64,000 nt of DNA, taken from Struthio camelus. Taxonomy: Eukaryota > Chordata > Aves > Struthioniformes > Struthionidae. The notes beneath the pieces were generated by a model that saw only the letters and a list, made by a program, of their open reading frames with translations, was not told the origin of the DNA and searched no databases. The stretch spans positions 29,571,068-29,635,067 of the forward strand of contig NC_090952.1 of NCBI RefSeq assembly GCF_040807025.1. Direction: 5' to 3'. The position numbers and the translations under genes were made by a program. Each line of letters opens with the position of its first letter. The first letter of the stretch is position 1. Shown here piece by piece: positions 22,266-62,600 of this stretch.

Positions 22266-22299
22266 AGGTAACTTACTCACATAACACATCGGGTCAGTG

Positions 22300-31279: not shown

Positions 31280-31605
31280 CCCAGCAGTAACCTTTCATAC
31301 CCTGTAAGGGGCCCCAGCCGGACTGACCAGGCGCCCCCAGGGCCAGCCGTAAAACGCCTCGGCACTCCCCACTGCGGCCACCCCGCACCTCCCGCGGCCG
31401 GGTCAGCACGCGGGCCGGCCGCCGGCACAGCGCTGCAGCTCTCCAGCTGGACAGGCAGAAGCACCGAAAGAGGAGTCGCACCGCGCCCGTGCCCCAGCCA
31501 CCGCTGGCGAAGCCCGGGACGCTGGGGCTCTGCTCGCGGAACCTTCCGCTGCTCATCACAGAACCGGAGAGCACGGCTTCACCTTCCACCCGGCGCCGCA
31601 CAACC

Positions 31606-31665
31606 GAGCCGAGCCGAGCCGAGCCGAGCCGAGCCGAGCCGAGCCGAGCCGAGCCGAGCCGAGCC
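31606..31665. repeat. (GAGCC)12 microsatellite
   Basis: Twelve perfect consecutive copies of GAGCC inside a CpG island. A perfect GC-rich pentamer of this length is likely length-polymorphic. It stays open in several frames, which creates spurious Glu-Pro-Ser-Arg-Ala type open frames. Confidence 0.97.
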
Positions 31666-31752
31666 GCCCAGCCCGACCACGGACGCCAGCCGGGCGCCGC
31701 CGCCCAGCGCTTCCGGCGCTGGTGGATGGAGCACGCATGCGCCTGCCGCCCG

Positions 31753-31832
31753 GCCCGCCCACGCTGCGGCCCGCCCACGCTGCGGCCCGCCCACGCTGCG
31801 GCCCGCCCACGCTGCGGCCCGCCCACGCTGCG
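31753..31832. repeat. 16-bp tandem repeat, 5 copies
   Basis: Five perfect copies of GCCCGCCCACGCTGCG, followed by GCCCGATCGG and a 5' splice consensus at 31842. Each unit carries a CCGCCCAC GC-box-like core, so this is a small cluster of candidate Sp/KLF sites just upstream of a potential exon end. Confidence 0.95.
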
Positions 31833-31850
31833 GCCCGATCGGTGAGTGCT

Positions 31851-33460: not shown

Positions 33461-33498
33461 AGCGCACCTTGCAACGGCAGCGCTCCAAATCTTAACCG

Positions 33499-34745
33499 CT
33501 GTATTTGGGGTTTCCAAAAAGTTTGATCTGTAATGCGTGAGACAAGTGATGTATTAAGACTTTTCCCTTAAAAAAATGATAAAGAGAAAACATGCATAAA
33601 TTTAGTAGCATCTTGCTTAAAACAAAATGCAAAGTTTACCTGTTACAGAGATGGAACCAATGATATCTGAAATAACAGAGAGGATCAGTGAGGAGGTTAT
33701 GTGAGTAATGCCTAATGAATTGGATGAAACAAGGAACCAAAGTGCAATTCAGTGGGCCCTTGATATCACCAGAAACTCTGCAGCAGGAGGTGTTCCAGCT
33801 TCGGCAACTAAGGCAACTAAGGTTACCTCTGTCTCTTGAGGGCAGCACTGAGGACTAAGTAATCCGTTCCTCCCTTGAAGATATTCTTAACTGTATCAGG
33901 CTTAGCCTCGCTTTGGTTGTTTTTGTTTTGTTATCACATATGCATATGTGAAAAGGGAAAGACATACTTACTTTTTGAGTTAATTGCCATGACTGAAGTT
34001 GAAGAGATCAGAAAAATGTGAACAAACTGAACTAATAAAATGGATCCAACTGAAAGCTGTCTGCATCTCTAAACAAGAGAAACCCTGGTGAGAAAGAATT
34101 ACCATTAATGGTAATGTAGGTAGGATAATAAATCACCAATATATAATGCAAGGTCTGCATATGCAACAACAAGTATGGTACATATATTTGTATGCATATG
34201 ATTTATGTATATATGAAGCATTGAATTTTAAGAGCAACAAGACACTAAGTTATCTTAGGTAGATGATAGCGAAGTGACCAGAGCTATGGAATAGGCAGGG
34301 AGAGAAAAAAGTGTCTGAACTGTAAAATTAAGAGAACAATTTCATTAAAGTTCAGTTAGTACAACCCCAGGTTAATTACATCGAAATGCTATTTAGGGAA
34401 ACAGAAAGATAGAAGAAAGATTAAAGCATTGTGAAATAATGACTCCTCATCAATTCCAACTTGGAAAAGTAATGTAACTTTGCTGATATCAGCAGATAGT
34501 GGTGGAAATCACTGGAAAGGAGTGAGGAATGGAGCTGGAACAAAGAGTGTGTTGCTGCTTTCACTAAACTGAAAGAAGTGGCCTAAAATTCCCAAGACAT
34601 AGAAGGCCTTTTGGAGTAACAATTCCTATGTCAGCTACTTCTGTGGGAGTAGCGCTGCGACAAAACAGCAGTGAGGGAAAGGGATAGCAGTAGCAGTGGA
34701 GTCGAGTCCCCTTTGGGGCCAGAAGAAAAAATTCTGCTACTATGA
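33499..34745 (+). repeat. Duplicated block, copy A
   Basis: This aligns colinearly with 40425-41815 on the same strand. Shared words include TTACAGAGATGGAA, GGATGAAACAAGGAA, ATATCACCAGAAACT, GGCAGCACTG, GCTTTGGTTGTTT, AACTGAAAGCTGTCT, CAACCCCAGGTTAAT, AATGGAGCTGGAACAA, CTTTCACTAAACTGAAAG and CCTTTGGGGCCAGA. Neither copy keeps a shared long open frame. The homology ends within a few bases of the first 76-bp unit. It may be a segmental duplication or an unrecognised transposon. A perfect 16-bp palindrome, CACATATGCATATGTG, lies at 33935-33950. Confidence 0.8.
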
Positions 34746-34779
34746 GCGTGGACAAGCCAGTACTGCACCCAGGGAAAGA

Positions 34780-34789
34780 GCGCATGCGC
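34780..34789. promoter_or_regulatory. First NRF1 palindrome of the 76-bp array
   Basis: GCGCATGCGC, flanked by A and G, fits the NRF1 consensus. It is the first of about 35 occurrences at 76-bp spacing; in three units the base pair after the decamer is AG instead of GG. NRF1 binds this palindrome as a dimer at CpG-island promoters, and binding is methylation-sensitive. Confidence 0.85.
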
Positions 34790-35216
34790 GGTGATCCCGC
34801 CCTGCTCCCTGCTGCCCTCGGGTGTCGACAGCGCAGTACTGCAGCCAGGGAGCGAGCGCATGCGCGGTGATCCCGCCGTGCTCCCTGCTGCCCTCGCGTG
34901 TCGACAGAGCAGTACTGCAGCCAGGGAGCGAGCGCATGCGCGGTGATCCCGCCGTGCTCCCTGCTGCCCTCGGGTGTCGACAACGCAGTACTGCAGCCAG
35001 GGAGAGAGCGCATGCGCGGTGATCCCGCCGTGCTCCCTGCTGCCCCCGGGTGTCGACAGTGCAGTACTGCACCCAGGGAGCGAGCGCATGCGCGGTGATC
35101 CCGCCGTGCTCCCTGCTGCCCTCGGGTGTCGACAGCGCAGTACTGCAGCGAGGGAGCGAGCGCATGCGCGGTGATCCCGCCCTGCTCCCTGCTGCCCTCG
35201 CGTGTCGACAACGCAG

Positions 35217-35292
35217 TACTGCACCGGTAAGGCGCCCGCCTGCGCACTGGTTTCCCTGTGCTCCCTGCTGCTCTCGGGTGTCGACAGTGCAG
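35217..35292. repeat. Variant 76-bp unit with 5' splice consensus
   Basis: After GCAGTACTGCAC this unit switches to CGGTAAGGCGCCCGCCTGCG and GTTTCCCTGTGCTCC. It loses the NRF1 decamer but keeps the 76-bp length. The same variant forms the right-hand end of the array at about 37490-37560, so an end-type unit has been copied into the interior. Confidence 0.9.
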
Positions 35293-37560
35293 TACTGCAG
35301 CCAGGGAGCGAGCGCATGCGCGGTGATCCCGCCGTGCTCCCTGCTGCCCTCGGGTGTCGACAGAGCAGTACTGCACCCAGGGAGCGAGCGCATGCGCAGT
35401 GATCCCGCCGTGCTCCCTGCTGCCCTCGGGTGTCGACAGAGCAGTACTGCAGCCAGGGAGCGAGCGCATGCGCGGTGATCCCGCCGTGCTCCCTGCTGCC
35501 CTCGGGTGTCGACAGAGCAGTACTGCACCCAGGGAGCGAGCGCATGCGCGGTGATCCCGCCGTGCTCCCTGCTGCCCTCGGGTGTCGACAACGCAGTACT
35601 GCAGCGAGGGAGCGAGCGCATGCGCGGTGATCCCGCCCTGCTCCCTGCTGCCCTCGGGTGTCGACAAGCCAGTACTGCAGCCAGGGAGCGAGCGCATGCG
35701 CGGTGATCCCGCCGTGCTCCCTGCTGCCCTCGGGTGTCGACAGCGCAGTACTGCAGCGAGGGAGCGAGCGCATGCGCAGTGATCCCGCCGTGCTCCCTGC
35801 TGCCCTCGGGTGTCGACAGAGCAGTACTGCAGCCAGGGAGCGAGCGCATGCGCGGTGATCCCGCCGTGCTCCCTGCTGCCCTCGGGTGTCGACAGCGCAG
35901 TACTGCACCCAGGGAGCGAGCGCATGCGCGGTGATCCCGCCGTGCTCCCTGCTGCTCTCGGGTGTCGACAGAGCAGTACTGCAGCCAGGGAGCGAGCGCA
36001 TGCGCGGTGATCCCGCCGTGCTCCCTGCTGCTCTCGGGTGTCGACAGTGCAGTACTGCAGCGAGGGAGCGAGCGCATGCGCGGTGATCCCGCCGTGCTCC
36101 CTGCTGCCCTCGGGTGTCGACAGCGCAGTACTGCAGCGAGGGAGCGAGCGCATGCGCGGTGATCCCGCCGTGCTCCCTGCTGCCCTCGGGTGTCGACAGA
36201 GCAGTACTGCAGCCAGGGAGCGAGCGCATGCGCGGTGATCCCGTCGTGCTCCCTGATGCCCTCGGGTGTCGACAGAGCAATACTGCACCCAGGGAGCGAG
36301 CGCATGCGCGGTGATCCCGCCGTGCTCCCTGCTGCCCTCGCGTGTCGACAGTGCAGTACTGCAGCCAGGGAGCGAGCGCATGCGCGGTGATCCCGCCCTG
36401 CTCCCTGCTGTCCCCGGGTGTCGACAGCGCAGTACTGCAGCCAGGGAGGGAGCGCATGCGCGGTGATCCCGCCGTACTCCCTGCTGCCCCCGGGTGTCGA
36501 CAGCGCAGTACTGCACCCAGGGAGCGAGCGCATGCGCGGTGATCCCGCCGTGCTCCCTGCTGCCCCCGGGTGTCGACAGCGCAGTACTGCACCCAGGGAG
36601 CGAGCGCATGCGCGGTGATCCCGCCGTGCTCCCTGCTGCCCTCGGGTGTCGACAGAGCAGTACTGCACCCAGGGAGCGAGCGCATGCGCGGTGATCCCGC
36701 CGTGCTCCCTGCTGCCCTCGGGTGTCGACAGAGCAGTACTGCACCCAGGGAGCGAGCGCATGCGCGGTGATCCCGCCCTGCTCCCTGCTGCCCTCGGGTG
36801 TCGACAAGCCAGTACTGCAGCCAGGGAGCGAGCGCATGCGCGGTGATCCCGCCGTGCTCCCTGCTGCCCTCGGGTGTCGACAGAGCAGTACTGCACCCAG
36901 GGAGCGAGCGCATGCGCGGTGATCCCGCCGTGCTCCCTGCTGCCCTCGGGTGTCGACAACGCAGTACTGCAGCGAGGGAGCGAGCGCATGCGCGGTGATC
37001 CCGCCCTGCTCCCTGCTGCCCTCGGGTGTCGACAAGCCAGTACTGCAGCCAGGGAGCGAGCGCATGCGCGGTGATCCCGCCGTGCTCCCTGCTGCCCTCG
37101 GGTGTCGACCGCGCAGTACTGCAGCGAGGGAGCGAGCGCATGCGCGGTGATCCCGCCGTGCTCCCTGCTGCCCTCGGGTGTCGACAGAGCAGTACTGCAC
37201 CCAGGGAGCGAGCGCATGCGCGGTGATCCCGCCCTGCTCCCTGCTGCCCTCGGGTGTCGACAGCGCAGTACTGCAGCCAGGGAGAGAGCGCATGCGCGGT
37301 GATCCCGCCCTGCTCCCTGCTGCCCTCGGGTGTCGACAGCGCAGTACTGCACCCAGGGAGCGAGCGCATGCGCAGTGATCCCGCCGTGCTCCCTGCTGCC
37401 CTCGGGTGCCGACAGAGCAGTACTGCACCCAGGGAGAGAGCGCATGCGCGGTGATCCCGCCGTGCTCCCTGCTGCCCTCGCGTGTCGACAAGCCAGTACT
37501 GCACCGGTAAGGCGCCCGCCTGCGCACTAGTTTCCCTGTGCTCCCTGCTGCCCTCCGGTG

Positions 37561-38680
37561 TCGACACGCCACTTCTGCAGCCGCCGCTGCCCTCGCCGGC
37601 GTACGGAGAATACTGCAGCCAGCCGGCGCGCACCCGCGCAGTGCCGGTCGCCGTGTTCGCCCCTACTCCGCCGTGTGTCGCTAACGGGTAAGCGAAGGGG
37701 CCGTGCTCCTCGCCCCTTCCCCGTGCTCACAGACCCGCAGCGCAGAGTGCTTTTCCGTACTGGTGCTTCCTTCCTGTTGTCGCGGGGACGGGCAGTGCCG
37801 CCTCGGCGCTGCTCCGCGGTGCCCTCACACCGGTGCAGCACCGGAGCCCGCTCGCTGATCCCCGCCGGGCTCTCGGGCACGGACCGAGCAGCCCCGGGGC
37901 GCCCGCCGCTGAGCGCGAGCCCCGCGGTGCCGCGGCGGGGGCGGCGGGCTGCAGCCCCGCGCCGGGAGCACGCGGGGGCGCCGTTCCCCGCCTGGCCTCC
38001 CTCCCGCTCCCCCCCTCCCCTTCCCTCCTTCCCTCCCACTCCCCTCCTCGCCCCTCCCCTCCCCTCCCCTCCCCTCCCGCTCGGGGCGGAGCCGGCGCAT
38101 GCGCGGTGCTCGAGAGCCGGGCCCCCGGCGCTGCCGCGCCCCGTTCGCGATCGGCGCATGTGCGGCGGGCGGCGCATGCGCGGCGGCGGGGAGCAGAATG
38201 GCGGCGCGCAGGGACGGAGTTTTCGCTGGGGCGGCGGCGGGTGAGGGCCGAGGCCGCCCGGAGTCGGGGATCTGGGGGCCCCGGTGAGGTGAGCGCGTCC
38301 CCTCGGGCGGCCTCGGGCGTCGGGCGGTTCCTGCCCGCTGGGGCCGTCGCTGCGTGGAGGCGGAGGTGCGGGGCGAGGTTTGGGGAGGGGGCTCGGGCCT
38401 GGCGCCGGCAGCGCGGCCCAGGGTCTGCCGGGAGCGCGGGTTTGACCGTCCGTTTGCCGCGTGTCGCCCTCAGGGCCCCGGTTCCTCCCCGGCGCGGCCG
38501 GGGCGGGCGCTCGCCCCTGCGGAGGCGGCCGGGAGGAGCGGCGAGGCAGGCGGGCCCCGGAGCGGCGCTGGGCGGACGGCTCCCGTCGCGGCTGGCCTGC
38601 CCGAGGGTGCTGGTAAGTCGCAAGGAAGCTTAAAGCTACCGGACCAAACCGATTTAAGGTCACTTTGAGCCAGGTGCAGT
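37561..38680. promoter_or_regulatory. CpG island promoter with NRF1 sites and candidate plus-strand first exon
   Basis: Extremely GC-rich. Perfect NRF1 decamers lie at 38095-38104 and 38172-38181. The words around the first (GCGCATGCGCGGTG) are identical to those in the 76-bp units. An ATG at 38198, 17 bp after the second site, opens a frame (MAARRDGVFAGAAA) that reaches a 5' splice consensus GTGAGG at 38241. The exon would be 43 nt and end in phase 1, compatible with the exon-like segment at 40080-40162. The left 150 bp hold further diverged 76-bp-type words. A (C)CCCTCCC-rich tract lies at 38010-38080. Long open frames here are composition effects. Confidence 0.65.
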
Positions 38681-39384
38681 TAGCGCAGCGCCGAGAACGT
38701 TTACTTGAGAGTTGTAGCTAGGGAAACGAGAAGGTGGACAGGGGAAAAATACGCCCAGGCACCCTGAGGCCTCCCCCAGTCGCAGGCCCAGACTGTGGGC
38801 CCCAGCCAACCCGGGCACCAACTGACTGTAACCCCTGCTGAGCCTCGCTGAGCCCCGCGCCTTCCTGCACAGCTGCCCCATAGCTGTGGGGTTCCCCAGT
38901 CCAGTGTGTGTCGATGGGTCCTCCGTTGCCTCTTACATCTCCCCAGGCACGCGTATGCTGCACGGGGGTGTGGGTGTCTCCAGCAGTGGCACAGCAGCCT
39001 GATGCCTCTTGTCTGGAAGGTGGGGTCCTTCACAGCTCTTCTGGGCTCTTGGTGAGTTCCCTGCTGCCTCTTCTGGCATTCTGTACAAGCTCGTAGATCC
39101 TTCCTCCTCCTCCAGTGGCTTCTCCTGCAAAGCTGACAGCCACATGCAGCACTGCTGTGCACTCAGTATGCATCTGGGGTGGCACCCCTGCCCTGAGGGC
39201 CCTGCAGATTCCCAACCTTCCTGCATCCAGCTCCCCCAAAAGCCAAGAAACCACCCACAGATCCTGTTCTAACACCCCTACAGACCCCAAAATGCCTCCA
39301 AACCCTGCCACAACATTGTCACTGACTCCAGACTTTCCCCCTCCAAGCCCCATACAGTCCTAAAACCACTCCTAGACCCTGTCC
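38681..39384. other. No gene recognised
   Basis: Moderately GC-rich DNA downstream of the CpG island; if the first exon at 38198-38240 is real, this is intronic. C-rich CCCCTACAGACCCC-like words at 39260-39370 resemble the satellite-like DNA further right, but without clear periodicity. Confidence 0.3.
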
Positions 39385-40345: not shown

Positions 40346-40424
40346 ACCAGAATAAGGTTTCATGGAAGATGGCATAGGTGTGTACTAGGTGATGTGCCTG
40401 CCTGTCTAATAACCTAGCCCTAGT

Positions 40425-43410: not shown

Positions 43411-43719
43411 AGTAAAATACCGTGACTGAACACAAGGTTCCTTCCCAGTCTGGGTCTGTGGGTGCACCCTCGGTCTTGCAGACACAGACACTCTGGAGGT
43501 GTAGGGATACAGGCAAGCAGGCCCACAAGTGGCCTCCACGTGCCTTTCGGTGTGGCTGCGGGTCCTCCACACAGCAGTGCCCAAGTGGACTTTGGGCCCA
43601 GCGGTACACAGAGAGCTCTGCAGCTCAGCAGGTGAGTGGAACTGGAGCGTGTTGAGGGCTGTTCCGGGCTGTCTGGATCCATCTGGTTCCACTCGCTGTC
43701 CCTCTGTCCAGCGCTCCAT

Positions 43720-44515: not shown

Positions 44516-45969
44516 TTCCTTTGTGTTTTGTCTGGTGTGGAAGGTGTCAAGAGGCAATTGGTGCTCAGCAGAGACGATCAGTAGCAACCAGAGGGTCCCA
44601 TCAATCTGCCTGGTTCAGGTCATGTCAGATACCCCTGCAGTGACTCTGTGCAGAGGCATGGGGCTGCGGATGTGCAGTGGGGGAGCACTAATGGGCCAAA
44701 GATGCTGTGGGGGGATGTGGTAGACATTAGCATGTGGTAGAGATTAGCAGAGGCTCTGAGTATTCGGGTGTTAGGACAGGTGCAGGTAGGGCAGGGTGTG
44801 CTAGGGCAGTCTGGAGCTGCTGTTGTCCGTCTTACACGTCAGCGCAGTCTGCAGTTACTGTGTCTTGTCTGCCTGTGCGCAGACAGGGCTGCTGCGCGGT
44901 GCAGTTGGAGTCGTGATTGTGTCGCTGGCATTGAGCCCTGTTTTCTGACTTTATGCAAACTGTTGTCTTCCCTACATCAGCCTTACTCTGCTCCTCTTCC
45001 AGGAGCCTGTGCTCAGCTCTGCTTTCCAACACGCTGTCACGTCACAGGGATTTCCAGCACGGTCTGTCTGACTTGGGCCACGTGCTAGGCAGCCTGAATG
45101 AGTGAAGCAAAATCCTTCTTCTGTCATTGTCCAGGCCAGAGTCAGTTTCCCATCAGCTCAGTCTCTCCAGGGTTTGGAGCTTTTGGAGGCCTTAGTTTTT
45201 ATCCTGCCTTGGCTGGACAGTGCTTTCTGAGAGTGTCTGTCAGCGGCACAGTTTCCCTGAGGAGGACCATCTACCGAAGGCTGGAGGTGACCGAGTGCCT
45301 GAGCGAGCCTGACTGTATGTGAGGGCTGCCGTGACATCCTTGCGATAAAACGGAGCCTGAGAGAGTGACTGGAGCAGTGTAGAGGGTCAGTCATAATTGT
45401 GGGAACAGTTACGGGCCTTGGACAAGGGAGTAGTTCTAGGAGGGCTGTGCAGTTGCCTGGCCTCTCAGTAACTGTTCTGGCTTCTTTGCAGGTGCTGAAG
45501 CATAGTCTGGCAGTCGAAGGAGCGGTGTCACAGCTGGGAGCTCTGCGGAGATCTGTGGCTGGCCATGAAGGTCGAGCTCTGACTTGCAGCGTGGACGCAG
45601 CTAAGTCTTGGGGCTGCACTGTGTGTGTGCAGGGCTGGGAGGTGGAAGGTGGTTGTCCCCTAGGTGGTTGCTGGAGTCACTGGCTGTGGATGTTTGCCCA
45701 TGGAGCTGAGGGGACCAAAAATATTAATTGTCTGTAATGGAGTTGAATAAGCGCTTGCAATGTTTCAGGTAGGTTCAGTGGAAGTGCAGCTTACTGCAGT
45801 CCTGTGGAGCGATTCTTGCATGTGCTCACATTTGAATGGTGGCTAAGACCAAGCTTATAAACAGCAACTGTAACATGATTCTGATGCATATCTTCCTGTT
45901 CTGCTGTACTTCTAAATGAAGGGGAAACTTCTTAAGCTGTGGGCAAAACTTGCAAGCTCATGTGTACTT
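44516..45969. other. No gene recognised
   Basis: Mixed GC content, no consistent splice-bounded coding frame, no known transposon. Open frames up to about 150 codons show no family motif. Confidence 0.3.
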
Positions 45970-46330
45970 TGGTGTTTCTTGCTTAAAGCTGAGGGTTTGG
46001 AGTTTTTCACTTGAGGTTTATTGTTTAGTTTGTTGTTGAGGGTCTGTCACTCAGGGGCTATGGTTTATTACTTTATTTAGTGGGGCTGTCTTTATCAGTC
46101 AGGGTTTACAGTTCGCTGACTTAGCGATCAGGGCGCAGGATTTAAAATCCAACCTCATCCGTAAATTTTAAAGCAACCACTTGGGTTCCAAGATTTGCAG
46201 TTTGTCACTTAGGGTTCAGGGCTTACGCCTTACTGATAAATGACAAGGGCTGAATCCTTAGATAATAAACTGTAAGCCCCGAAGCCTAAGCAGCAGGCTG
46301 CAAACCCTTCTCTGGGGTTCCTAACCTTCC
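45970..46330. repeat. Diverged AGGGTTT-type repeat
   Basis: Words such as GAGGGTTTGGAG, GAGGTTTATTG, CAGGGTTTACAG and TTAGGGTTCAGGG recur every 35-45 bp with GTCACT/GTCACTTA between some of them. Near 46260-46300 the complementary sense appears (CTGTAAGCCCCGAAGCCTAAG), so part is inverted. It looks like an old minisatellite with a telomere-like core. Confidence 0.4.
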
Positions 46331-46839
46331 CCTGTTCCCAGCGTTCAGCTTTGTGCACTGACCTGAGGTCTGGATTTGATAAGGCGCAGGCCCATCGCAC
46401 TGAGAGTGGTGATGTGACAGGTGAGGTGAGAGCTGTGAAAGTGTCTTGCAGGGCTCTAGTCTGGGGTAGGGCAGTAGTGCAGACAGGCAGGATCAGAGAT
46501 CAAAGATCTTCTCACCTGTCAGAGCTGAATCCTATCCCTGAAGGAAAAAGTAGAGGGGATAGGCTGTCAGCTACTCAGACGCCTGCCACGTCAAGGGCAG
46601 CAGCAGGAGCTGACCCTTCCCCAAAGGACCGACGAACGCCGGTGCAGAGATGACTCTTCAGGTGTCACAGGGTAAGGGGAAGCATGCTGGCACCGAGCTC
46701 CATGGCAAACTCCCTCCCAGGTGTTGTTTCTGTGCAGTAAAACAATAAACAGTTGCTTTATTCTTTGCACTTGTGTCTGTGGTTCCTGCCGTCGCTTTGC
46801 CTGAAGATGATGCTCGGGGGAGGAGGTTACACATTGTGT
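46331..46839. other. No gene recognised
   Basis: No splice-bounded coding frame or known repeat is seen. AATAAA at 46743-46748 is followed by T-rich sequence and could be a plus-strand poly(A) signal, but no gene is attached to it. Confidence 0.25.
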
Positions 46840-47640
46840 CTGGGATTGGGAGCTGGTCCCCACATCCTTTGTACTTGGGGGTCCCTGCGGTTCCCAGGGA
46901 CCCCAGTGCTGTTCAAAGGGCTCGGGGTAACTTCCCTTGCATTGCCTCGACCCTTGGGGCTCTTGGTGGAGTTTTCCATTATCCTGGGGGCAGCCAGGGC
47001 CCCCCCCAGGGCCATGTGAAGTCCCCAGACTGCCCTCAGATTTGCTTTCAGCACTCCGCAATGTCCCTCATGTGTCGGTGGCGGGGGCCTGTGTGCCTGG
47101 TGCTGGGAGACAGTTTTCCTGGGGAAAGGGGGAGCCTGCAGGCACCTTGCCGTCAGCTGCATTGAGCCCTGTGACATGCCTTGTGGCCACTTTAGTGTGC
47201 ACAAAGGCCCTTCACTTGAATTTTGGTTTGCCCAAGAGCCCTGCATTTGCCCTTTGGTGGTCCTCAGGACAGCTCAATTCACGTTTTGGGTTGCTGGCAA
47301 GCCCTCTGTGTGCTTTTCCGCGTGCCCTGGGGCCCGATGTTTGTTTTGCAGCACACTGCAAAGTTCCTTGTCCAGGGATCCAGGACAAGGATCCCTGGAA
47401 AGATCCAGAGGATCTTTATCCCCTGTCCCAGAGTTTTCTGGGTGATTTTTGGTGTGCCCCAGGGTCCTGCCTTTGCCTTTTGGTGCCCCCAGAGTCACTC
47501 TGTTTGCTCTATCATCACCTGGTAATTTTTTTTTTTTTTAACTTCTATTGCACCCAGAGGTCTCGATTTGTTCTCTTGTGCCCTGAATACTCCCTTTTCC
47601 TCTCTGTACCCCCCAGGGCTCTCCCTTCAGCTTTTAGCGA
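46840..47640. repeat. Old diverged monomers related to the right-hand satellite
   Basis: Words typical of the satellite at 50.5-64 kb recur here in loose order: CCCTGCATTTGCCCTTTGG, GTCCTCAGGAC, TTGGTGCCCCCAGAG, GTGCCCCAGGG. Similarity is low and periodicity poor, as expected for the oldest flank of such an array. A T-run lies at 47527-47539. Confidence 0.45.
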
Positions 47641-47739: not shown

Positions 47740-48535
47740 AGCTGTGGACCCTGGGGCTGGAACAAGCCCCAGGTGGGGCTGGGGGCCACGGCAGGCATGC
47801 GCCGGGGCTGGGGCCGCAGTCGGGAGGAAGCTCGTGCAGGGGCTGGTCTGGGACAACGGAGCTGCCTCTGAGCACCGCCCGCCGGGACCGGCGCTGCGGC
47901 CGCACCGCGGAGGAGGTGAGCGGGGCCGGGGGGTGCGCGCGTCCCGGCAGACGGGAGCATCTCGGGCCAGCGGAAACTGCGCCGGGGATGGCGGTGCACC
48001 AGGGCGGTGGGGAAGAGCAGAGCACCGGGGCCACGGGGAGTGGTCAGGAAGGGGGTGCGCCGGGGCTGGGGGAGAGGTAGGAGGGGGGCCAGGGCTGTGA
48101 TGGGGCGAGGAGCGGAGAGAAAAGGGGGGCGCCAGGGCGAGGGTGGAACGAGGAAGGGGTTGCACCGGGGCTGGAGGAGGAAAGAAAAGGGGCGTCGGGG
48201 CTGCAGTGGTGTGGGGGGAGGGAGGACGGGGGGGCGTCGGGGCTGGCGGGGTTGGTTTATTGCGCGGTGGGAGTGGCGCGGGGGGTCCTGGGTCAGACCG
48301 GGACCGTGTCGGGGGGGACGGGGGAAGGAGAGATCCCAGAGGAAGGCCTGGGAGAGTCGCAGTGGGGGCAGGGGCAGTGTCGGAGCTGACCCGGGGCCGG
48401 TCCGGCGGCGTCGGGGGAATCTCGGGCCGGGGTTGGGGATCGCGGGGCCGCGCTCCGGGCTCGGCGGCGTCCGGGTGTCAGGGGGCGGGAGGGTGGTTGG
48501 GACGGGAAGGAACTGAATCGCCCGAGGGTCAAGCT
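47740..48535. promoter_or_regulatory. CpG island, probable promoter
   Basis: A G-rich, CpG-dense block next to the 61-bp array. On the plus strand a 5' splice consensus (GGAGGTGAGCGG) occurs near 47910-47920. The plus strand is G-rich and the minus strand C-rich, opposite to the satellite further right. No initiating exon of a recognised gene was found. Confidence 0.55.
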
Positions 48536-48540
48536 TCACA

Positions 48541-49235
48541 GAGCGCTGAGGACCGCGGCATGCCGGGAGCAGTAGTCTTCCGGCATGGGGCTTCCGGGCG
48601 GCCATGTTGTTTCGCGGGCCATGCCGGGAGCAGTACTCTTCCGGCATGGGGCTTCCGGGCGGCCATGTTGTTTTGCGGGCCATGCCGGGAGGAGTAGTCT
48701 TCCGGCACGGGGCTTCCGGGCGGCCATGTTGGTTCGCCGTGCATGCCGGGAGGAGTAGTCTTCCGGCACGGGGCTTCCGGGCGGCCATGTTGGTTCGCCG
48801 TGCATGCCGGGAGGAGTAGTCTTCCGGCACGGGGCTTCCGGGCGGCCATGTTGGTTCGCTCTGCCTGCCGGGAGTAGTAGTCTTCCGGCACGGGGCTTCC
48901 GGGAGGCCATGTTGCTTTGCGGGCCATGCCGGGAGGAGTAGTCTTCCGGCACGGGGCTTCCGGGCGGCCATGTTGTTTCGCTCTGCCTGCCGGGAGCAGT
49001 AGTCTTCCGGCACGGGGCTTCCGGGCGGCCATGTTGTTTTGCGGGCCATGCCGGGAGGAGTAGTCTTCCGGCACGGGGCTTCCGGGCGGCCATGTTGTTT
49101 CACTCTGCATGCTGGGAGTAGTAAACTTCCGGCACTGAGCTTCCGGGCGGCCATGTTGCTTCGCTCTGCATGCCGGGAGGAGTAGTCTTCCAGCAGTAGC
49201 TTTCCCGGCGGCCATTTTAATCTACAGGGCATGCT
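48541..49235. repeat. 61-bp tandem array, 11 units, with YY1/ETS/ZNF143-like motifs
   Basis: GCCATGTTG words start at 48601, 48662, 48723, 48784, 48845, 48906, 48967, 49028, 49089 and 49150, with GCCATTTTA at 49211: exactly 61 bp apart, no indels. On the minus strand each unit shows CAACATGGCCGCC (YY1 consensus CAAnATGGCnGC), two CCGGAAG ETS cores (CCCGGAAGC and GCCGGAAGAC), and ACTACTCCTCCCGGCATGC, which resembles the ZNF143 site ACTACAnnTCCCAGCATGC. The last unit is diverged. Open frames of 180-530 codons across it are repeat artefacts. Confidence 0.95.
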
Positions 49236-52069: not shown

Positions 52070-52101
<32 letters not shown>

Positions 52102-53600: not shown

Positions 53601-56600
53601 TTGGGACTGTTCTTGTTCCAAAGAGGCCGCCATGGAGGTCCTCCTTCTTCCCCAGAGTTGTCTTTTGGCTAGGCACACGCCTGGAGGGCCCCCTCTGGTG
53701 CCCTCGGCACTACTCTGGCAGGTTTCCCTGTGCCCCAGAGCTGGATCTTGGCTCCCTAGGCCCCTTCGCACTGCTCTAGAGGGCTCCGCACCACTCTTTG
53801 GCTCTTCCTTGCTGCCCAGAGCTGTCCCTTGCTCGTGCCGAGCCCTCAGGAAAGGTCTAGGTGGCCCAGACCCCCTCCAGAGGTCTTCCTTTTCCCCCAG
53901 AGTCTCCTTTTGTCCTGGCACACGCCTTGAGGGTCCCCTCTGGTGCCCTCGGGACTACTCTGGCAGGTTTCCCTGTGCCCCAGAGCTGTCTTCGGCCCCC
54001 CCACAGCTCTTAGCACTGCTCTCTCCACCTCAGAGCCCCTGGGCAGACCTTTGGGGTGCCCCAGAGCTGTCTTTTGGCTCTCCAGACCCCTTAGGCACTG
54101 TCTAGGTGGCCCAGACCCCTTCCTCAGCTCCTCCTCCTTCCCTAGAGTGGGGTTTTGGGTCATGTGAACCCTTGAGGGCCCCCTCTGGTGCCCTCGGGAC
54201 TACTCTGGCAGGTTTCCCTGTGCCCCAGAGCTGTGTAGGTGCCCCCCACAGCTCTTAGCACTGCTGTCTCCACCTCAGAGCCCCTGGGCAGACCTTTGGC
54301 GTGCCCCAGAGCTGTCTTTTTGCCCCCCAGACGCCTTAGGCACTGTCTAGGTGGCCCAGACCCCTTCCTCAGCTCCTCCTCCTTCCCTAGAGTGGGGTTT
54401 TGGGCCATGTAAACCCTTAAGGGCCCCCTCTGGGGCCCTCGGCACTACTCTGGCAGGTTTCCCTGTGCCCAGAGCTGGATCTTGGCTCCCTAGGCCCCTT
54501 CGCACTGCTCTAGAGTACTCCACACCACTCTCTGGCTCTTCCTTGCTAGCCAGAGCTGGCTCTTGCTCGTGCTGAGCCCTCAGGAACGGTCTAGGTGGCC
54601 CAGACCCCCTCCTCAGCTCCTCCTCCTTCCCCAGAGTCTCTTTGTGGCCATGCAGAGCCCTTAGAAGCCCTCTCGTGACTTCTGAACTACAATTGCAGTA
54701 CTCGTTGTGCCCCAGAGCTGTTTTTTGGCCCCCCAGATCCCTTAGGCACTGTCTAGGTGGCCCAGAGCCCCTCCTGAGCTCCTCTTCCTTCCCCAGAGTG
54801 GCCTTTTGGCTAGGCACACGCCTGGAGGGCCCCCTCTGCTGCCCTCGGGACTACTCTGGCAGGTTTCCCTCTGCCCCAGAGCTGTCTTCGGGCCCCCCAG
54901 AACTCTTAGCACTGCTGTCTCCACCTCAGAGCCCCTGGGCAGACTTTTGGGGTGCCCCACAGCACTCTTTTGGCCCTCCGGACCCCTTAGGCACTGTCTA
55001 GGTGGCCCAGAGCCCCTCCTCAGCTCCTCCTCCTTCCCTAGAGTGGGGTTTTGGGTCATGTAAACCCTTGAGGGCCCCCTCTGGTGCCCTCGGGACTACT
55101 CTGGCAGGTTTCCCTCTGCCCCAGAGCTGTGTAGGTGCCCCCCACAGCTCTTAGCACTGCTGTCTCCACCTCAGAGCCCCTGGGCAGACCTTTGGGGTGC
55201 CCCAGAGCTGTGTTGGGGCCCCCCATAGCTCTTAGCACTGCTCTATCCACCTCAGAGCCCCTGCGGAGACCTTTGGCGTGCCCCAGAGCTGTCTTTTGGC
55301 TCTCCGGACCCCTTAGGCACTGTCTAGGTGGCCCAGACCCCCTCCTCAGCTCCTCCTCCTTCCCCAGAGTGGCCTTTTGGCTAGGCACACGCCTTGAGGG
55401 CCCCCTCTGGTGCCCTCGGGACTACTCTGGCAGGTTTCCCTCTGCCCCAGAGCTGGATCTTGGCTCCCTAGGCCCCTTCGCACCGCTCTAGAGCGCTCCG
55501 CACCACTCTCTGGCTCCTCCTTGCTAGCCAGAGCTGTCCCTTGCTCGTGCTGAGCCCTCGGGAAAGGTCTAGGTGGCCCAGACCCCCTCCAGAGGTCTTC
55601 CTTCTCCCCCAGAGTTGCCTTTTGGCTAGGCACACGCCTTGAGGGCCCCCTCTGGTGCCCTCGGGACTACTCTGGCAGGTTTCCCTGTGCCCCAGAGCTG
55701 TCTTCGGCCCCCCCACAGCTCTTAGCACTGCTCTATCCACCTCAGAGCCCCTGGGGAGACCTTTGGCGTGCCCCACAGCACTCTTTTGGCCCTCTGGACC
55801 CCTTAGGCACTGTCTAGGTGGCCCAGAGCCCCTCCTCAGCTCCTCCTCCTTCCCTAGAGTGGGGTTTTGGGTCATGTAAACCCTTGAGGGCCCCCTCTGG
55901 TGCCCTCGGGACTACTCTGGCAGGTTTCCCTCTGCCCCAGAGCTGTGTAGGTGCCCCCCACAGCTCTTAGCACTGCTGTCTCCACCTCAGAGCCCCTGGG
56001 GAGACCACAGCACTGTTTTGGCCCTCCGGACCCCTTAGGCACTGTCTAGGTGGCCCAGACGCCGTCCTCAGCTCCTCCTCCTTCCCCAGAGTTGTCTTTT
56101 GGCTAGGCACACGCCTGGAGGGCCCCCTCTGGGGCCCTCGGCACTACTCTGGCAGGTGTCCCTGTGCCCCAGAGCTGCATCTTGGCTCCCTAGGCCCCTT
56201 CGCACTGCTCTAGAGGGCTCCGCAGCACTCTTTGGCTCTTCCTTGCTGCCCAGAGCTGTCCCTTGCTCGTGCCGAGCCCTCAGGAAAGGTCTAGGTGGTC
56301 CAGATCCCCTCCAGAGGTCTTCCTTTTCCCCCAGAGTCTCCTTTTGTCCTGGCACATGCCTTGAGGGTCCCCTCTGGTGCCCTCGGGACTACTCTGGCAG
56401 GTTTCCCTGTGCCCCAGAGCTGTCTTCGGCCCCCCCACAGCTCTTAGCACTGCTCTCTCCACCTCAGAGCCCCTGGGCAGACCTTTGGGGTGCCCCAGAG
56501 GTGTCTTTTTGCCCCCCAGACCCCTTAGGCACTGTCTAGGTGGCCCAGACCCCTCCTCAGCTCCTCCCCCTTCCCCAGAATGGGGTTTTGGGCCATGTAA

Positions 56601-59600
56601 ACCCTTAAGGGCCCCCTCTGGGGCCCTCGGCACTACTCTGGCAGGTTTCCCTGTGCCCAGAGCTGGATCTTGGCTCCCTAGGCCCCTTCGCACTGCTCTA
56701 GAGTACTCCACAGCACTCTTTGGCTCTTCCTTGCTAGCCAGAGCTGGCTCTTGCTCGTGCTGAGCCCTCAGGAACGGTCTAGGTGGCCCAGACCCCCTCC
56801 TCAGCTCCTCCTCCTTCCCCAGAGTCTCTTTGTGGCCATGCAGAGCCCTTAGAAGCCCTCTCGTGACTTCTGAACTACAATTGCAGTACTCGTTGTGCCC
56901 CAGAGCTGTTTTTTGGCCCCCCAGATCCCTTAGGCACTGTCTAGGTGGCCCAGATCCCCTCCTGAGCTCCTCCTCCTTCCCCAGAGTGGCCTTTTGGCTA
57001 GGCACACGCCTGGAGGGCCCCCTCTGGTGCCCTCGGGACTACTCTGGCAGGTTTCCCTGTGCCCCAGAGCTGTCTTCGGGCCCCCCAGAACTCTTAGCAC
57101 TGCTGTCTCCACCTCAGAGCCCCTGGGGAGACCTTTGGGGTGCCCCACAGCACTCTTTTGGCCCTCCGGACCCCTTAGGCACTGTCTAGGTGGCCCAGAG
57201 CCCCTCCTCAGCTCCTCCTCCTTCCCTAGAGTGGGGTTTTGGGTCATGTAAACCCTTGAGGGCCCCCTCTGGTGCCCTCGGGACTACTCTGGCAGGTTTC
57301 CCTGTGCCCCAGAGCTGTGTAGGTGCCCCCCACAGCTCTTAGCACTGCTGTCTCCACCTCAGAGCCCCTGGGCAGACCTTTGGGGTGCCCCAGAGCTGTG
57401 TTGGGGCCCCCCATAGCTCTTAGCACTGCTCTATCCACCTCAGAGCCCCTGCGGAGACCTTTGGCGTGCCCCAGAGCTGTCTTTTGGCTCTCCGGACCCC
57501 TTAGGCACTGTCTAGGTGGCCCAGACGCCGTCCTCAGCTCCTCCTCCTTCCCTAGAGTGGCCTTTTGGCTAGGCACACGCCTTGAGGGCCCCCTCTGGTG
57601 CCCTCGGGACTACTCTGGCAGGTTTCCCTCTGCCCCAGAGCTGGATCTTGGCTCCCTAGGCCCCTTCGCAACTCTCTAGAGCACCCCGCAACACTCTTTG
57701 GCTCCTCCTTGCTAGCCAGAGCTGTCTCTTGCTCGTGCTGAGCCCTTAGGAACGGTCTAGGTGGCCCAGACCCCCTCCTCAGCTCCTCCTCCTTCCCCAG
57801 AGTGGTCTTTTGGCTAGGCACACGCCTTGAGGGCCCCCTCTGGGGCCCTCGGCACTACTCTGGCAGGTTTCCCTCTGCCCCAGAGCTGGATCTTGGCTCC
57901 CTAGGCCCCTTCGCACTGCTCTAGAGCACTCCGCAGCACTCTTTGGCTCTTCCTTGCTAGCCAGAGATGTCTCTTGCTCGTGCTGAGCCCTTAGGAACGG
58001 TCTAGGTGGCCCAGACCCCCTCCTGAGCTCCTCCTCCTTCCCCAGAGTCTCTTTGTGGCCATGCAGAGCCCTTAGAAGCCCTCTCGTGACTTCTGAACTA
58101 CAATTGCAGTACTCGTTGTGCCCCAGAGCTGTTTTTTGGCCCCCCAGATCCCTTAGGCACTATCTAGGTGGCCTGGATCCCCTCCTAAGCTCCTCTTCCT
58201 TCCCCAGAGTTGTCTTTTGGCTAGGCACACGCCTGGAGGGCCCCCTCTGGTGCCCCCGGGACTACTCTGGCAGGTTTCCCTCTGCCCCAGAGCTGGATCT
58301 TGGCTCCCTAGGCCCCTTCGCACCGCTCTAGAGCGCTCCGCACCACTCTCTGGCTCCTCCTTGCTAGCCAGAGCTGTCCCTTGCTCGTGCTGAGCCCTCG
58401 GGAAAGGTCTAGGTGGCCCAGACCCCCTCCAGAGGTCTTCCTTCTCCCCCAGAGTTGCCTTTTGGCTAGGCACACGCCTTGAGGGCCCCCTCTGCTGCCC
58501 TCGGGACTACTCTGGCAGGTTTCCCTGTGCCCCAGAACTGTCTTCGGCCCCCCCACAGCTCTTAGCACTGCTCTATCCACCTCCGAGCCCCTGTGGAGAC
58601 CTTTGGGGTGCCCCAGAGCAGTCTTTTGGCCCCCCAGACCCCTTAGGCACTGTCTAGGTGGCCCAGATCCCCTCCTGAGCTCCTCCTCCTTCCCCAGAGT
58701 GGTCTTTTAGCTAGGCACATGCCTTGAGGGCCCCCTCTGCTGCCCTCGGGACTACTCTGGCAGGTTTCCCTCTGCCCCAGAGCTGTCTTCGGGCCCCCCA
58801 GAACTCTTAGCACTGCTGTCTCCACCTCAGAGCCGCTGGGCAGACTTTTGGGGTGCCCCACAGCACTCTTTTGGCCCTCCGGACCCCTTAGGCACTGTCT
58901 AGGTGGCCCAGACCCCCTCCTCAGCTCCTCCTCCTTCCCCAGAGTTGTCTTTTGGCTAGGCACACGCCTTGAGGGCCCCCTCTGGTGCCCTCGGGACTAC
59001 TCTGGCAGGTTTCCCTCTGCCCCAGAGCTGGATCTTGGCTCCCTAGGCCCCTTCGCACTGCTCTAGAGCACTCCGCAGCACTCTTTGGCTCTTCCTTGCT
59101 AGCCAGAGATGTCTCTTGCTCGTGCTGAGCCCTTAGGAACGGTCTAGGTGGCCCAGACCCCCTCCTGAGCTCCTCCTCCTTCCCCAGAGTCTCTTTGTGG
59201 CCATGCAGAGCCCTTAGAAGCCCTCTCGTGACTTCTGAACTACAATTGCAGTACTCGTTGTGCCCCAGAGCTGTTTTTTGGCCCCCCAGATCCCTTAGGC
59301 ACTATCTAGGTGGCCCGGATCCCCTCCTAAGCTCCTCTTCCTTCCCCAGAGTTGTCTTTTGGCTAGGCACACGCCTGGAGGGCCCCCTCTGGTGCCCTCG
59401 GGACTACTCTGGCAGGTTTCCCTCTGCCCCAGAGCTGGATCTTGGCTCCCTAGGCCCCTTCGCACCGCTCTAGAGCGCTCCGCACCACTCTCTGGCTCCT
59501 CCTTGCTAGCCAGAGCTGTCCCTTGCTCGTGCTGAGCCCTCGGGAAAGGTCTAGGTGGCCCAGACCCCCTCCAGAGGTCTTCCTTCTCCCCCAGAGTTGC

Positions 59601-62600
59601 CTTTTGGCTAGGCACACGCCTTGAGGGCCCCCTCTGGTGCCCTCGGGACTACTCTGGCAGGTTTCCCTGTGCCCCAGAGCTGTCTTCGGCCCCCCCACAG
59701 CTCTTAGCACTGCTCTATCCACCTCAGAGCCCCTGCGGAGACCTTTGGCGTGCCCCACAGCACTCTTTTGGCCCTCCGGACCCCTTAGGCACTGTCTAGG
59801 TGGCCCAGACCCCTCCTCAGCTCCTCCTCCTTCCCTAGAGTGGGGTTTTGGGTCATGTAAACCCTTGAGGGCCCCCTCTGGTGCCCTCGGGACTACTCTG
59901 GCAGGTTTCCCTCTGCCCCAGAGCTGTGTAGGTGCCCCCCACAGCTCTTAGCACTGCTCTATCCAGCTCAGAGCCCCTGGGGAGACCACAGCACTGTTTT
60001 GGCCCTCTGGACCCCTTAGGCACTGTCTAGGTGGCCCAGAGCCCCTCCTCAGCTCCTCCTCCTTCCCCAGAGTTGTCTTTTGGCTAGGCACACGCCTTGA
60101 GGGCCCCCTCTGGTGCCCTCGGGACTACTCTGGCAGGTTTCCCTCTGCCCCAGAGCTGGATCTTGGCTCCCTAGGCCCCTTCGCACCGCTCTAGAGCGCT
60201 CTGCACCACTCTCTGGCTCCTCCTTGCTAGCCAGAGCTGTCCCTTGCTCGTGCTGAGCCCTCGGGAAAGGTCTAGGTGGCCCAGACCCCCTCCAGAGGTC
60301 TTCCTTCTCCCCCAGAGTTGCCTTTTGGCTAGGCACACGCCTTGAGGGCCCCCTCTGCTGCCCTCGGGACTACTCTGGCAGGTTTCCCTGTGCCCCAGAG
60401 CTGTCTTCGGCCCCCCCACAGCGCTTAGCACTGCTCTATCCACCTCAGAGCCCCTGGGGAGACCTTTGGGGTGCCCCAGAGGTGTCTTTTTGCCCCCCAG
60501 ACCCCTTAGGCACTGTCTAGGTGGCCCAGATCCCCTCCTGAGCTCCTCCTCCTTCCCCAGAGTGGTCTTTTAGCTAGGCACACGCCTTGAGGGCCCCCTC
60601 TGCTGCCCTCGGGACTACTCTGGCAGGTTTCCCTGTGCCCCAGAGCTGTCTTCGGGCCCCCCAGAACTCTTAGCACTGCTGTCTCCACCTCAGAGCCGCT
60701 GGGCAGACTTTTGGGGTGCCCCACAGCACTCTTTTGGCCCTCCGGACCCCTTAGGCACTGTCTAGGTGGCCCAGACCCCCTCCTCAGCTCCTCCTCCTTC
60801 CCTAGAGTGGGGTTTTGGGTCATGTAAACCCTTGAGGGCCCCCTCTGGTGCCCTTGGGACTACTCTGGCAGGTTTCCCTCTGCCCCAGAGCTGTGTAGGT
60901 GCCCCCCACAGCTCTTAGCACTGCTGTCTCCACCTCAGAGCCCCTGGGCAGACCTTTGGGGTGCCCCAGAGCTGTGTTGGGGCCCCCCATAGCTCTTAGC
61001 ACTGCTCTATCCACCTCAGAGCCCCTGCGGAGACCTTTGGCGTGCCCCAGAGCACTCTTTTGGCTCTCCAGACCCCTTAGGCACTGTCTAGGTGGCCCAG
61101 AGCCCCTCCTCAGCTCCTCCTCCTTCCCTAGAGTGGGGTTTTGGGTCATGTAAACCCTTGAGGGCCCCCTCTGGTGCCCTCGGGACTACTCTGGCAGGTT
61201 TCCCTCTGCCCCAGAGCTGGATCTTGGCTCCCTAGGCCCCTTTGCACTGCTCTAGAGCACTCCGCAGCACTCTTTGGCTCTTCCTTGCTAGCCAGAGATG
61301 TCTCTTGCTCGTGCTGAGCCCTTAGGAACGGTCTAGGTGGCCCAGACCCCCTCCTGAGCTCCTCCTCCTTCCCCAGAGTCTCTTTGTGGCCATGCAGAGC
61401 CCTTAGAAGCCCTCTCGTGACTTCTGAACTACAATTGCAGTACTCGTTGTGCCCCAGAGCTGTTTTTTGGCCCCCCAGATCCCTTAGGCACTATCTAGGT
61501 GGCCCGGATCCCCTCCTAAGCTCCTCTTCCTTCCCCAGAGTTGTCTTTTGGCTAGGCACACGCCTGGAGGGCCCCCTCTGGTGCCCTCGGGACTACTCTG
61601 GCAGGTTTCCCTCTGCCCCAGAGCTGGATCTTGGCTCCCTAGGCCCCTTCGCACCGCTCTAGAGCGCTCCGCACCACTCTCTGGCTCCTCCTTGCTAGCC
61701 AGAGCTGTCCCTTGCTCGTGCTGAGCCCTCGGGAAAGGTCTAGGTGGCCCAGACCCCCTCCAGAGGTCTTCCTTCTCCCCCAGAGTTGCCTTTTGGCTAG
61801 GCACACGCCTTGAGGGCCCCCTCTGGTGCCCTCGGGACTACTCTGGCAGGTTTCCCTGTGCCCCAGAACTGTCTTCGGCCCCCCCACAGCTCTTAGCACT
61901 GCTCTATCCACCTCAGAGCCCCTGCGGAGACCTTTGGGGTGCCCCAGAGGTGTCTTTTTGCCCCCCAGACCCCTTAGGCACTGTCTAGGTGGCCCAGATC
62001 CCCTCCTGAGCTCCTCCTCCTTCCCCAGAGTGGTCTTTTAGCTAGGCACACGCCTTGAGGGCCCCCTCTGCTGCCCTCGGGACTACTCTGGCAGGTTTCC
62101 CTGTGCCCCAGAGCTGTCTTCGGGCCCCCCAGAACTCTTAGCACTGCTGTCTCCACCTCAGAGCCCCTGGGCAGACTTTTGGGGTGCCCCACAGCACTCT
62201 TTTGGCCCTCCGGACCCCTTAGGCACTGTCTAGGTGGCCCAGACCCCCTCCTCAGCTCCTCCTCCTTCCCTAGAGTGGGGTTTTGGGTCATGTAAACCCT
62301 TGAGGGCCCCCTCTGGTGCCCTTGGGACTACTCTGGCAGGTTTCCCTCTGCCCCAGAGCTGTGTAGGTGCCCCCCACAGCTCTTAGCACTGCTGTCTCCA
62401 CCTCAGAGCCCCTGGGGAGACCACAGCACTGTTTTGGCCCTCTGGACCCCTTAGGCACTGTCTAGGTGGCCCGGATCCCCTCCTAAGCTCCTCTTCCTTC
62501 CCCAGAGTTGTCTTTTGGCTAGGCACACGCCTGGAGGGCCCCCTCTGGTGCCCCCGGGACTACTCTGGCAGGTGTCCCTCTGCCCCAGAGCTGGATCTTG

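What the first reader, a model, noticed from the sequence alone, without database searches (positions are those of the whole stretch)
34745..37560. Array of about 35 perfect NRF1 palindromes at exactly 76-bp spacing
Seen: GCGCATGCGC repeats from 34780 to 37449 on an unbroken 76-bp grid, with two further palindromes (TGTCGACA, GCAGTACTGCA) per unit. Known: this decamer is the NRF1 consensus core, normally present once or twice at CpG-island promoters. Inferred: such a homotypic cluster could titrate NRF1, act as a strong methylation-sensitive promoter or enhancer, or be a hypermutable copy-number switch. The absence of any indel in about 37 units suggests recent homogenisation or a constraint on spacing.
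Basis: partly seen in the sequence, partly recalled or inferred. Interest (0 to 1): 0.78.

Follow-up and report, generated by a model that had tools for sequence, protein, structure and literature searches.

The report
Chromosome-end promoter with repeated NRF1 sites
A tandem array of 35 perfect NRF1-type sites turns out to be one copy of a CpG-rich, promoter-like block that sits near dozens of chromosome ends in this (probably bird) genome, facing outward, much like the promoters that make telomeric RNA in humans.

Summary
The array is real: 37 units of exactly 76 bp (34758-37569), 35 with a perfect GCGCATGCGC. It abuts a CpG island (37570-38700) with three more NRF1-type sites, one inexact here. 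The finding lies outside the window: array and island are one copy of a subtelomeric block. I tabulated 47 island copies, all 47 pointing to the nearer contig end, on 31 ends (one lies 3.5 Mb inside a contig); a second promoter-like array (61 bp, YY1/ETS-like motifs, 48559-49215) follows 9-11 kb further out; together they mark 36 ends (capped lists, so lower bounds). CpG obs/exp (0.89 against 0.20 in the adjoining satellite) and no excess of CpG transitions suggest an unmethylated germline state. GC skew switches as expected for outward transcription. Best reading: a homotypic NRF1 promoter array driving telomere-ward, probably noncoding, transcription, working like human 61-29-37 TERRA promoters, spread by exchange between chromosome ends. 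NRF1 binding, transcription and TERRA output are inferred. Against a strict TERRA label: 12 to 280 kb separate the 61-bp array from telomere-type repeats where both were found. Titration and spacing constraint are not supported.

The parts
34758..37569 (+). 37 x 76-bp tandem array; 35 units carry GCGCATGCGC
35214..35289 (+). unit 7, variant cassette without the NRF1 palindrome, shared with unit 37 thirty units away
37494..37569 (+). unit 37, variant cassette at the promoter edge of the array; contains GGTAAG
37609..37680 (+). diverged single relic of the same unit inside the CpG island
   Evidence: nhmmer E 0.013
37570..38700 (+). CpG island, promoter-like; GC skew -0.45 in 38001-38150, +0.32 in 38151-38300
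38095..38104 (.). NRF1-type decamer, exact in 26 of 27 aligned copies
38154..38163 (.). NRF1-type site with one mismatch here; exact in 16 of 20 aligned copies
38172..38181 (.). NRF1-type decamer, exact in 26 of 28 aligned copies
38198..38287 (+). ATGGCGGC (YY1-like, name recalled) opening a 29-codon frame, kept at 29 codons in 23 of 28 copies with amino-acid changes
45200..47000 (.). spacer segment, 96-100% identical, full length at 39 of the 40 main places listed
47750..48558 (+). second CpG-rich stretch with positive GC skew (to +0.63)
48559..49215 (.). 61-bp tandem array, 10.8 copies: GCCATGTTG x10, CTTCCGG x20 (YY1/ETS-like), ZNF143-like motif (names recalled)
53639..64000 (.). 81/245-bp satellite family, CpG-depleted; continues through the next 60 kb of the contig

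Best explanation
The array is the homotypic upstream element of a subtelomeric CpG-island promoter. SHOWN: 76-bp array, CpG island, spacer and 61-bp array form a block copied to at least 36 chromosome ends, with the array centromere-ward and the island telomere-ward; copies are exchanged between chromosomes, and array length varies. INDICATED by base composition and substitution pattern: array and island are unmethylated in the germline. INFERRED: NRF1 (whose binding methylation blocks) occupies the repeated sites, keeps the island open and starts Pol II transcription towards the telomere near 38.15-38.2 kb, producing a subtelomeric, probably noncoding RNA through the spacer and perhaps the satellite; a second YY1/ETS-type tandem promoter 10 kb further out may do the same nearer the telomere. 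Open chromatin at a tandem repeat in an exchanging chromosome end would itself promote unequal exchange, explaining expansion and homogeneity. It works like human 61-29-37 TERRA promoters; whether its RNA reaches (TTAGGG)n is open.
For: Copies and orientation: 47 of 47 island copies outward on 31 ends (one of the 47, on C6, lies 3.5 Mb inside); 37 of 38 61-bp arrays outward (from; contig lengths). The one not outward (C38) faces telomere-type repeats about 19 kb away, and a spacer copy 2.9 Mb inside C5 faces such repeats about 20 kb away. C1 start: telomere-type CCCTAA repeats at 7.5 kb, satellite at about 21-44 kb, 61-bp array at 47.7 kb, island at 58.9 kb, 76-bp array to 61.0 kb. CpG obs/exp 0.89 array, 0.86 61-bp array, 0.20 satellite; CpG transition types 2 at 18 CpG positions, other transition types 9 at 58 positions. 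CpGs in the NRF1 core vary less than other CpGs: 7/763 v 79/1690, 22/185 v 85/320, 4/188 v 45/586 in three unit subfamilies. GC skew. Precedent: NRF1 sites in the 29-bp repeat of human TERRA promoters, methylation sensitive (PMC6600276; abstract, introduction and section 2.5 read); 37 of 46 human ends have 61-29-37 promoters (PMC12242772, passages).
Against: No expression, ChIP or methylation data. Common orientation follows automatically from exchange between ends, so it does not by itself show function. 12 to 280 kb lie between the 61-bp array and telomere-type repeats where both were found. NRF1 preference is not uniform: the exact decamer is kept in 137 of 154 units of subfamily A but 15 of 37 in B and 18 of 47 in C; in C the core as a whole is no better conserved than the rest (7.2% v 6.5%) and the exact decamer ranks 45 of 62 windows; it ranks 3 of 47 only if the central base is ignored, a choice made afterwards. 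In A, windows starting at 46-51 are better conserved. Between subfamily consensuses 0 of 9, 0 of 17 and 0 of 16 differences fall in the core, P 0.24, 0.05 and 0.07. Units are not independent. In the island, 9%, 36% and 11% of 10-mers are as conserved as the three sites. A 29-codon frame at the start is kept in 23 of 28 copies, which suits a coding or uORF-bearing transcript as well.
Confidence: 0.56

Rival explanations
1. The island is the promoter of an ordinary multicopy subtelomeric gene (protein-coding or lncRNA) that rode along in the duplicon; facing the telomere has no telomeric role.
For: Housekeeping-type promoter (NRF1 sites plus ATGGCGGC); ATG kept in 27 of 28 copies and a 29-codon frame in 23 of 28; GTGAGG-type donor words recur; the 45.2-47.0 kb segment is 96-100% identical at the listed places, more than the island (77-97%); C41 and C40 hold 9 and 4 island copies in tandem.
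Against: No Pfam domain at or above cut-off in six frames of 38-53 kb (one hit of 13.9 bits, cut-off 29.8) and no PDB match at E 0.01 in the three forward frames of 38.0-48.5 kb; short exons could be missed.
Confidence: 0.28
2. A neutral GC-rich minisatellite: tandem expansion and biased gene conversion in an unmethylated, recombination-prone chromosome end; the NRF1 match is incidental.
For: Homogeneous array with a diverged edge unit, lag-18 duplication, length differences between ends, exchange between chromosomes (between C1 and C11, 9 of 10 300-bp bins over 40.5-43.5 kb have no substitution), decay of the decamer in subfamilies B and C.
Against: Two unrelated tandem arrays in the block both consist of promoter motifs; CpGs in the NRF1 core vary less than other CpGs in all three subfamilies; the neighbouring satellite is also tandem but CpG-depleted.
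Confidence: 0.2
3. Boundary element: array units act as CTCF/NRF1 insulators shielding the chromosome from subtelomeric heterochromatin.
For: A CTCF-like match of 12.4 bits or more (recalled matrix) lies in 26 of 36 units; subtelomeric CTCF sites start TERRA in human cells (PMC5727389, abstract in a search listing).
Against: The matrix is recalled; the site has C where A is strongly preferred; about 7e-5 of positions in random 70% G+C sequence score 12 or more; two single sites elsewhere in the window score higher (15.7 at 5644, 15.5 at 33352).
Confidence: 0.08
4. NRF1 sink that titrates the factor.
For: 438 exact subtype-A units genome-wide.
Against: The genome has 4069 perfect decamers in all, so these add little; no evidence of a dosage effect.
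Confidence: 0.03

Closest known systems
Human 61-29-37 TERRA promoters (Type I)
   Same: Subtelomeric, CpG-rich, tandemly repeated, NRF1 sites in the units of one repeat, present at most chromosome ends, transcribing towards the telomere (PMC6600276, PMC12242772)
   Different: 76-bp and 61-bp units with other motifs; 12 to 280 kb from telomere-type repeats where measured; 35 perfect NRF1 palindromes in this copy; RNA not shown. The shared number 61 is treated as coincidence; the human letters were not compared.
PO41 subtelomeric repeat transcripts of chicken and quail (PMC4301066)
   Same: Transcribed subtelomeric tandem repeat in birds
   Different: PO41 is the transcribed repeat itself; the paper holds no occurrence of CpG or CTCF, and the one promoter passage seen names no CpG island or NRF1
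Human subtelomeric duplicons
   Same: Segmental blocks shared by many chromosome ends (PMC2323237 seen in a search listing only); exchange in fixed orientation is recalled
   Different: Here the block carries two tandem promoter-like arrays
CTCF-binding macrosatellite DXZ4
   Same: Tandem repeat bound by a regulatory protein (PMC3491370, abstract in a search listing)
   Different: X-linked locus; much longer units (recalled)

Membership tests
61-29-37-type TERRA promoter | located in subtelomeres of many chromosomes | tested here: met
   36 distinct contig ends, C38 not counted
61-29-37-type TERRA promoter | CpG-rich tandem repeat with NRF1 sites | tested here: met
61-29-37-type TERRA promoter | faces the telomere | tested here: met
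   47 of 47 island copies and 37 of 38 61-bp arrays face the nearer contig end; a duplicon exchanged between ends would do so anyway
61-29-37-type TERRA promoter | within a few kb of (TTAGGG)n (distance recalled) | tested here: not met
   61-bp array to telomere-type repeat: about 12 kb on C208, 19 on C38, 23 on C27, 27 on C40, 30 on C23, 31 on C19, 66 on C7, 120 on C15, 282 on C21, about 40 on C1
61-29-37-type TERRA promoter | homology to the human repeats | not tested
   human letters not at hand
61-29-37-type TERRA promoter | RNA containing UUAGGG from this start | not testable with these tools
   no RNA data
61-29-37-type TERRA promoter | CTCF binding | tested here: inconclusive
   recalled matrix, 12.4 bits or more in 26 of 36 units
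NRF1-driven CpG-island promoter | NRF1 core motif above chance | tested here: met
   35 against 0.1 expected
NRF1-driven CpG-island promoter | unmethylated CpG island | tested here: inconclusive
   indirect only: CpG obs/exp 0.89, no CpG transition excess
NRF1-driven CpG-island promoter | NRF1 occupancy | not testable with these tools
   needs CUT&RUN
Minisatellite / VNTR | tandem units of variable number | tested here: met
   matches span about 1.4 kb at C1 start to about 6.2 kb at C4 end; between individuals untested
Subtelomeric duplicon | shared, oriented block at several ends with recent exchange | tested here: met

The most novel reading that the evidence does not exclude
This lineage evolved, independently of primates, a genome-wide telomere-facing promoter system in which NRF1 is recruited by long homotypic arrays to transcribe chromosome ends into telomere-associated RNA, linking NRF1 (metabolic) signalling to telomeres; array length would tune output end by end.
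Probability: 0.32. Interest if true: 0.87.

Novelty: new variant of a known kind. Interest (0 to 1): 0.74.

Why it matters
NRF1 control of telomere transcription is documented in human cells at the 61-29-37 repeats. An NRF1 array of a different repeat in the same position and orientation at dozens of ends of a distant vertebrate would suggest convergent recruitment of NRF1 to chromosome ends, and would give a natural series of arrays of different length to test dose, methylation and exchange. It also gives a clean contrast, within one chromosome end, between tandem repeats that keep CpG (the promoter-like arrays) and one that lost it (the satellite).

Tried and rejected
Rejected: assembly artefact (island copies with different array lengths and 77-97% identity on many contigs). 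Rejected: the CpG-rich region 31250-33520 as an older part of the same array; its matches to the unit are weak (best E 0.09) and it has only two short matches elsewhere. Rejected: a protein encoded by the array; three open minus-strand frames of 928-1032 aa run through because the unit has no stop on that strand. Rejected: fixed 76-bp spacing as a constraint. Led nowhere: Pfam in six frames of 4.7-34.7 kb and 38-53 kb found one reverse transcriptase and one hit below cut-off; bases 1-4701, 34700-38000 and 53001-64000 were not scanned. Rfam at gathering cut-offs found nothing, so the ARAGORN tRNA-Arg at 32254-32343 is doubted. GTAAG/GTGAG donor-like words recur across copies but no second exon was found. 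The conservation test of NRF1 sites in the island was not decisive. No paper on TERRA promoters in birds was seen in the listings; two listed papers that mention both birds and telomeric repeat-containing RNA (PMC7757076, PMC9693754) were not opened, and preprints and most subscription journals are not in that library.

The decamer at 38095 is exact in 26 of 27 copies, not all. C1 and C11 are not free of differences over 3 kb; one of ten bins has some.
Full report
Observation. The array exists as described: 37 head-to-tail units of 76 bp, 34758-37569, no indel. Thirty-five units hold GCGCATGCGC; units 7 and 37 carry a variant cassette. The 35 canonical units are 95% identical pairwise; 57 of 76 columns do not vary among them; a 300-bp exact match 18 units apart exceeds all 100 unit-order shuffles. 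So the array was homogenised by recent internal duplication.

Immediate anatomy. The array abuts a CpG island (37570-38700; 77% G+C and CpG obs/exp 0.98 for 37583-38700) that holds a diverged relic of the same unit (37609-37680, E 0.013), two exact NRF1-type decamers (38095, 38172) and one near-match (38154) just before ATGGCGGC at 38198. GC skew is -0.45 in 38001-38150 and +0.32 in 38151-38300, the pattern expected of a start site reading to the right (expectation recalled). Ten kb to the right is a second CpG-rich array of 61-bp units with GCCATGTTG (10 copies) and CTTCCGG (20 copies), YY1- and ETS-like by recalled names, preceded by DNA with positive GC skew. From 53.6 kb on lies an 81/245-bp satellite family; arrays of period 70-420, mainly 245, cover 95-100% of each of the next six 10-kb stretches of the contig. 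No protein domain at cut-off was found apart from a reverse transcriptase at about 10.3-10.8 kb, and no PDB match in the three forward frames of 38.0-48.5 kb.

The wider genome changes the picture. The window is C11:29571068-29635067 of a 1.45-Gb genome, and C11 is 29763035 long, so the array is about 155 kb from the contig end. A search with 37100-38300 returned 208 matching pieces, not all listed; the longest piece at most ends is 77-97% identical. The 216-bp core promoter gives 42 pieces. Both searches score a limited number of candidates, so counts are lower bounds. I tabulated 47 island copies: 40 (two short split pieces left out) and 7 more; 38 of the 48 pieces of the 61-bp array search (left out: 8 secondary pieces beside a listed one, and the unplaced contigs C120 and C208); and 29 of the 42 pieces of the spacer search (left out: two short C1 pieces and 11 further tandem copies on C40 and C41). 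The unplaced C125 was left out of the first. Result: 47 of 47, 37 of 38 and 29 of 29 point to the nearer contig end; 31 distinct ends have both island and 61-bp array, 36 have at least one (37 with C38). Start coordinates of island and 61-bp array are 9.0-11.2 kb apart at the 32 places where both were placed. The copy that seemed wrongly oriented (C38:371950) faces telomere-type repeats at 391860 on that contig, and a spacer copy 2.9 Mb inside C5 faces telomere-type repeats at 2886343; the copy 3.5 Mb inside C6 is unexplained. An exact-pattern search shows a 76-bp array also at the end of C2.

Distances. On C1 the order from the tip is N (7.5 kb), CCCTAA-type repeats, other DNA, satellite at about 21-44 kb, 61-bp array (47.7-48.7 kb), island (58.9 kb), 76-bp array (to 61.0 kb). 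A pattern made from the C1 telomere junction has 21 matches; where it lies beyond a listed 61-bp array the gap is about 12 kb (C208), 19 (C38), 23 (C27), 27 (C40), 30 (C23), 31 (C19), 66 (C7), 120 (C15) and 282 kb (C21). The last 5 kb of C11 hold neither TTAGGG nor CCCTAA, so that contig end is probably incomplete.

Exchange between chromosomes. C1 and C11 share 36131-53778 in two pieces at about 97%; 9 of 10 300-bp bins over 40.5-43.5 kb have no substitution, and the largest differences lie in the 61-bp array and at the satellite edge. The segment 45.2-47.0 kb is 96-100% identical at the 40 main places listed, 39 of them over the full 1801 bases (C1 covers 1770), although islands and arrays differ by up to 23%. 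Either this segment is homogenised more often or it is constrained; I cannot tell which. The region left of the block, 31250-33520, has only two short matches elsewhere, and 24000-26000 has partial relatives at 66-79% (with two short pieces at 86 and 92%) on a few contigs.

Methylation and NRF1. CpG obs/exp is 0.89 in the array, 0.86 in the 61-bp array, 0.15-0.31 in flanks outside the CpG-rich stretches, 0.20 in the satellite. Among 22 substitution types in the array, CpG transitions are 2 at 18 CpG positions, other transitions 9 at 58 positions. This is what an unmethylated germline state gives. Across 28 places the units fall into three subfamilies (grouping by eye). NRF1-core columns diverge less than the rest in A (1.3% v 3.9%, 154 units) and B (9.8% v 21.0%, 37 units) but not in C (7.2% v 6.5%, 47 units), where the central base is variable; CpGs in the core vary less than other CpGs in all three. 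The exact decamer is kept in 137 of 154, 15 of 37 and 18 of 47 units. Units with many gaps and units resembling the variant cassette were dropped before these counts, and columns 1-2 and 75-76 were left out. Because units are copies of each other, the Fisher values are too optimistic. Between subfamily consensuses no difference falls in the core, but that is not significant (P 0.24, 0.05, 0.07). In the island the three sites are exact in 26 of 27, 16 of 20 and 26 of 28 copies, which 9%, 36% and 11% of 10-mers there match or better. I read this as moderate, not decisive, support for NRF1 being the reason the array stays as it is.

Transcript. The ATG at 38198 is kept in 27 of 28 copies and opens a 29-codon frame in 23 of 28 (GTG in one of them), with amino-acid changes; five copies have 7, 19, 31, 80 and 80 codons. 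This is compatible with a short upstream frame, a first coding exon, or chance retention in young copies.

Mechanism proposed. Repeated NRF1 sites keep the island unmethylated and drive telomere-ward transcription; open repetitive chromatin in an exchanging chromosome end favours unequal exchange, so the array expands and is homogenised. The closest known system is the human 61-29-37 TERRA promoter, whose 29-bp repeat has NRF1 sites and is repressed by methylation (PMC6600276; abstract, introduction and section 2.5 read), and which marks 37 of 46 human ends (PMC12242772, passages). It works like such a promoter; it is not shown to be one. The uniform orientation is an expected result of exchange between ends and is not itself evidence of function.

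Verdict. New variant of a known kind; high interest because it makes convergent NRF1 control of chromosome-end transcription testable.

Noticed in passing
window 31250-33520: A separate CpG-rich region (obs/exp 0.95) with (CCGAG)n, a 16-bp repeat and several ACGCATGCGC words; only two short matches elsewhere in the genome; perhaps another promoter.
   Followed up: partly
window 22001-23000: Small CpG-rich stretch (58.6% G+C, CpG obs/exp 0.63) with one NRF1-like near-match at 22714.
   Followed up: no
C40:70.23-70.35 Mb and C41:89.71-89.90 Mb: The block is tandemly repeated (4 and 9 island copies) near the ends of two large contigs that may be sex chromosomes (inference from size and numbering).
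   Followed up: partly
C5:2886343 and C38:391860: Telomere-type repeats inside contigs with the block facing them about 20 kb away: assembly misjoins or chromosome fusions.
   Followed up: partly
C1:27404635-27578308: Ten perfect GCGCATGCGC at 18-22 kb steps, suggesting a large tandem repeat elsewhere on C1.
   Followed up: no
window 45200-47000: Spacer segment far more homogeneous between chromosome ends than the island and arrays beside it.
   Followed up: partly
window 38198-38287: 29-codon frame at the island's ATG, kept at that length in 23 of 28 copies.
   Followed up: partly
window 33570-34735: 1.2-kb stretch left of the array matches C1:55376-56655 at 68%, probably an interspersed repeat.
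   Followed up: no
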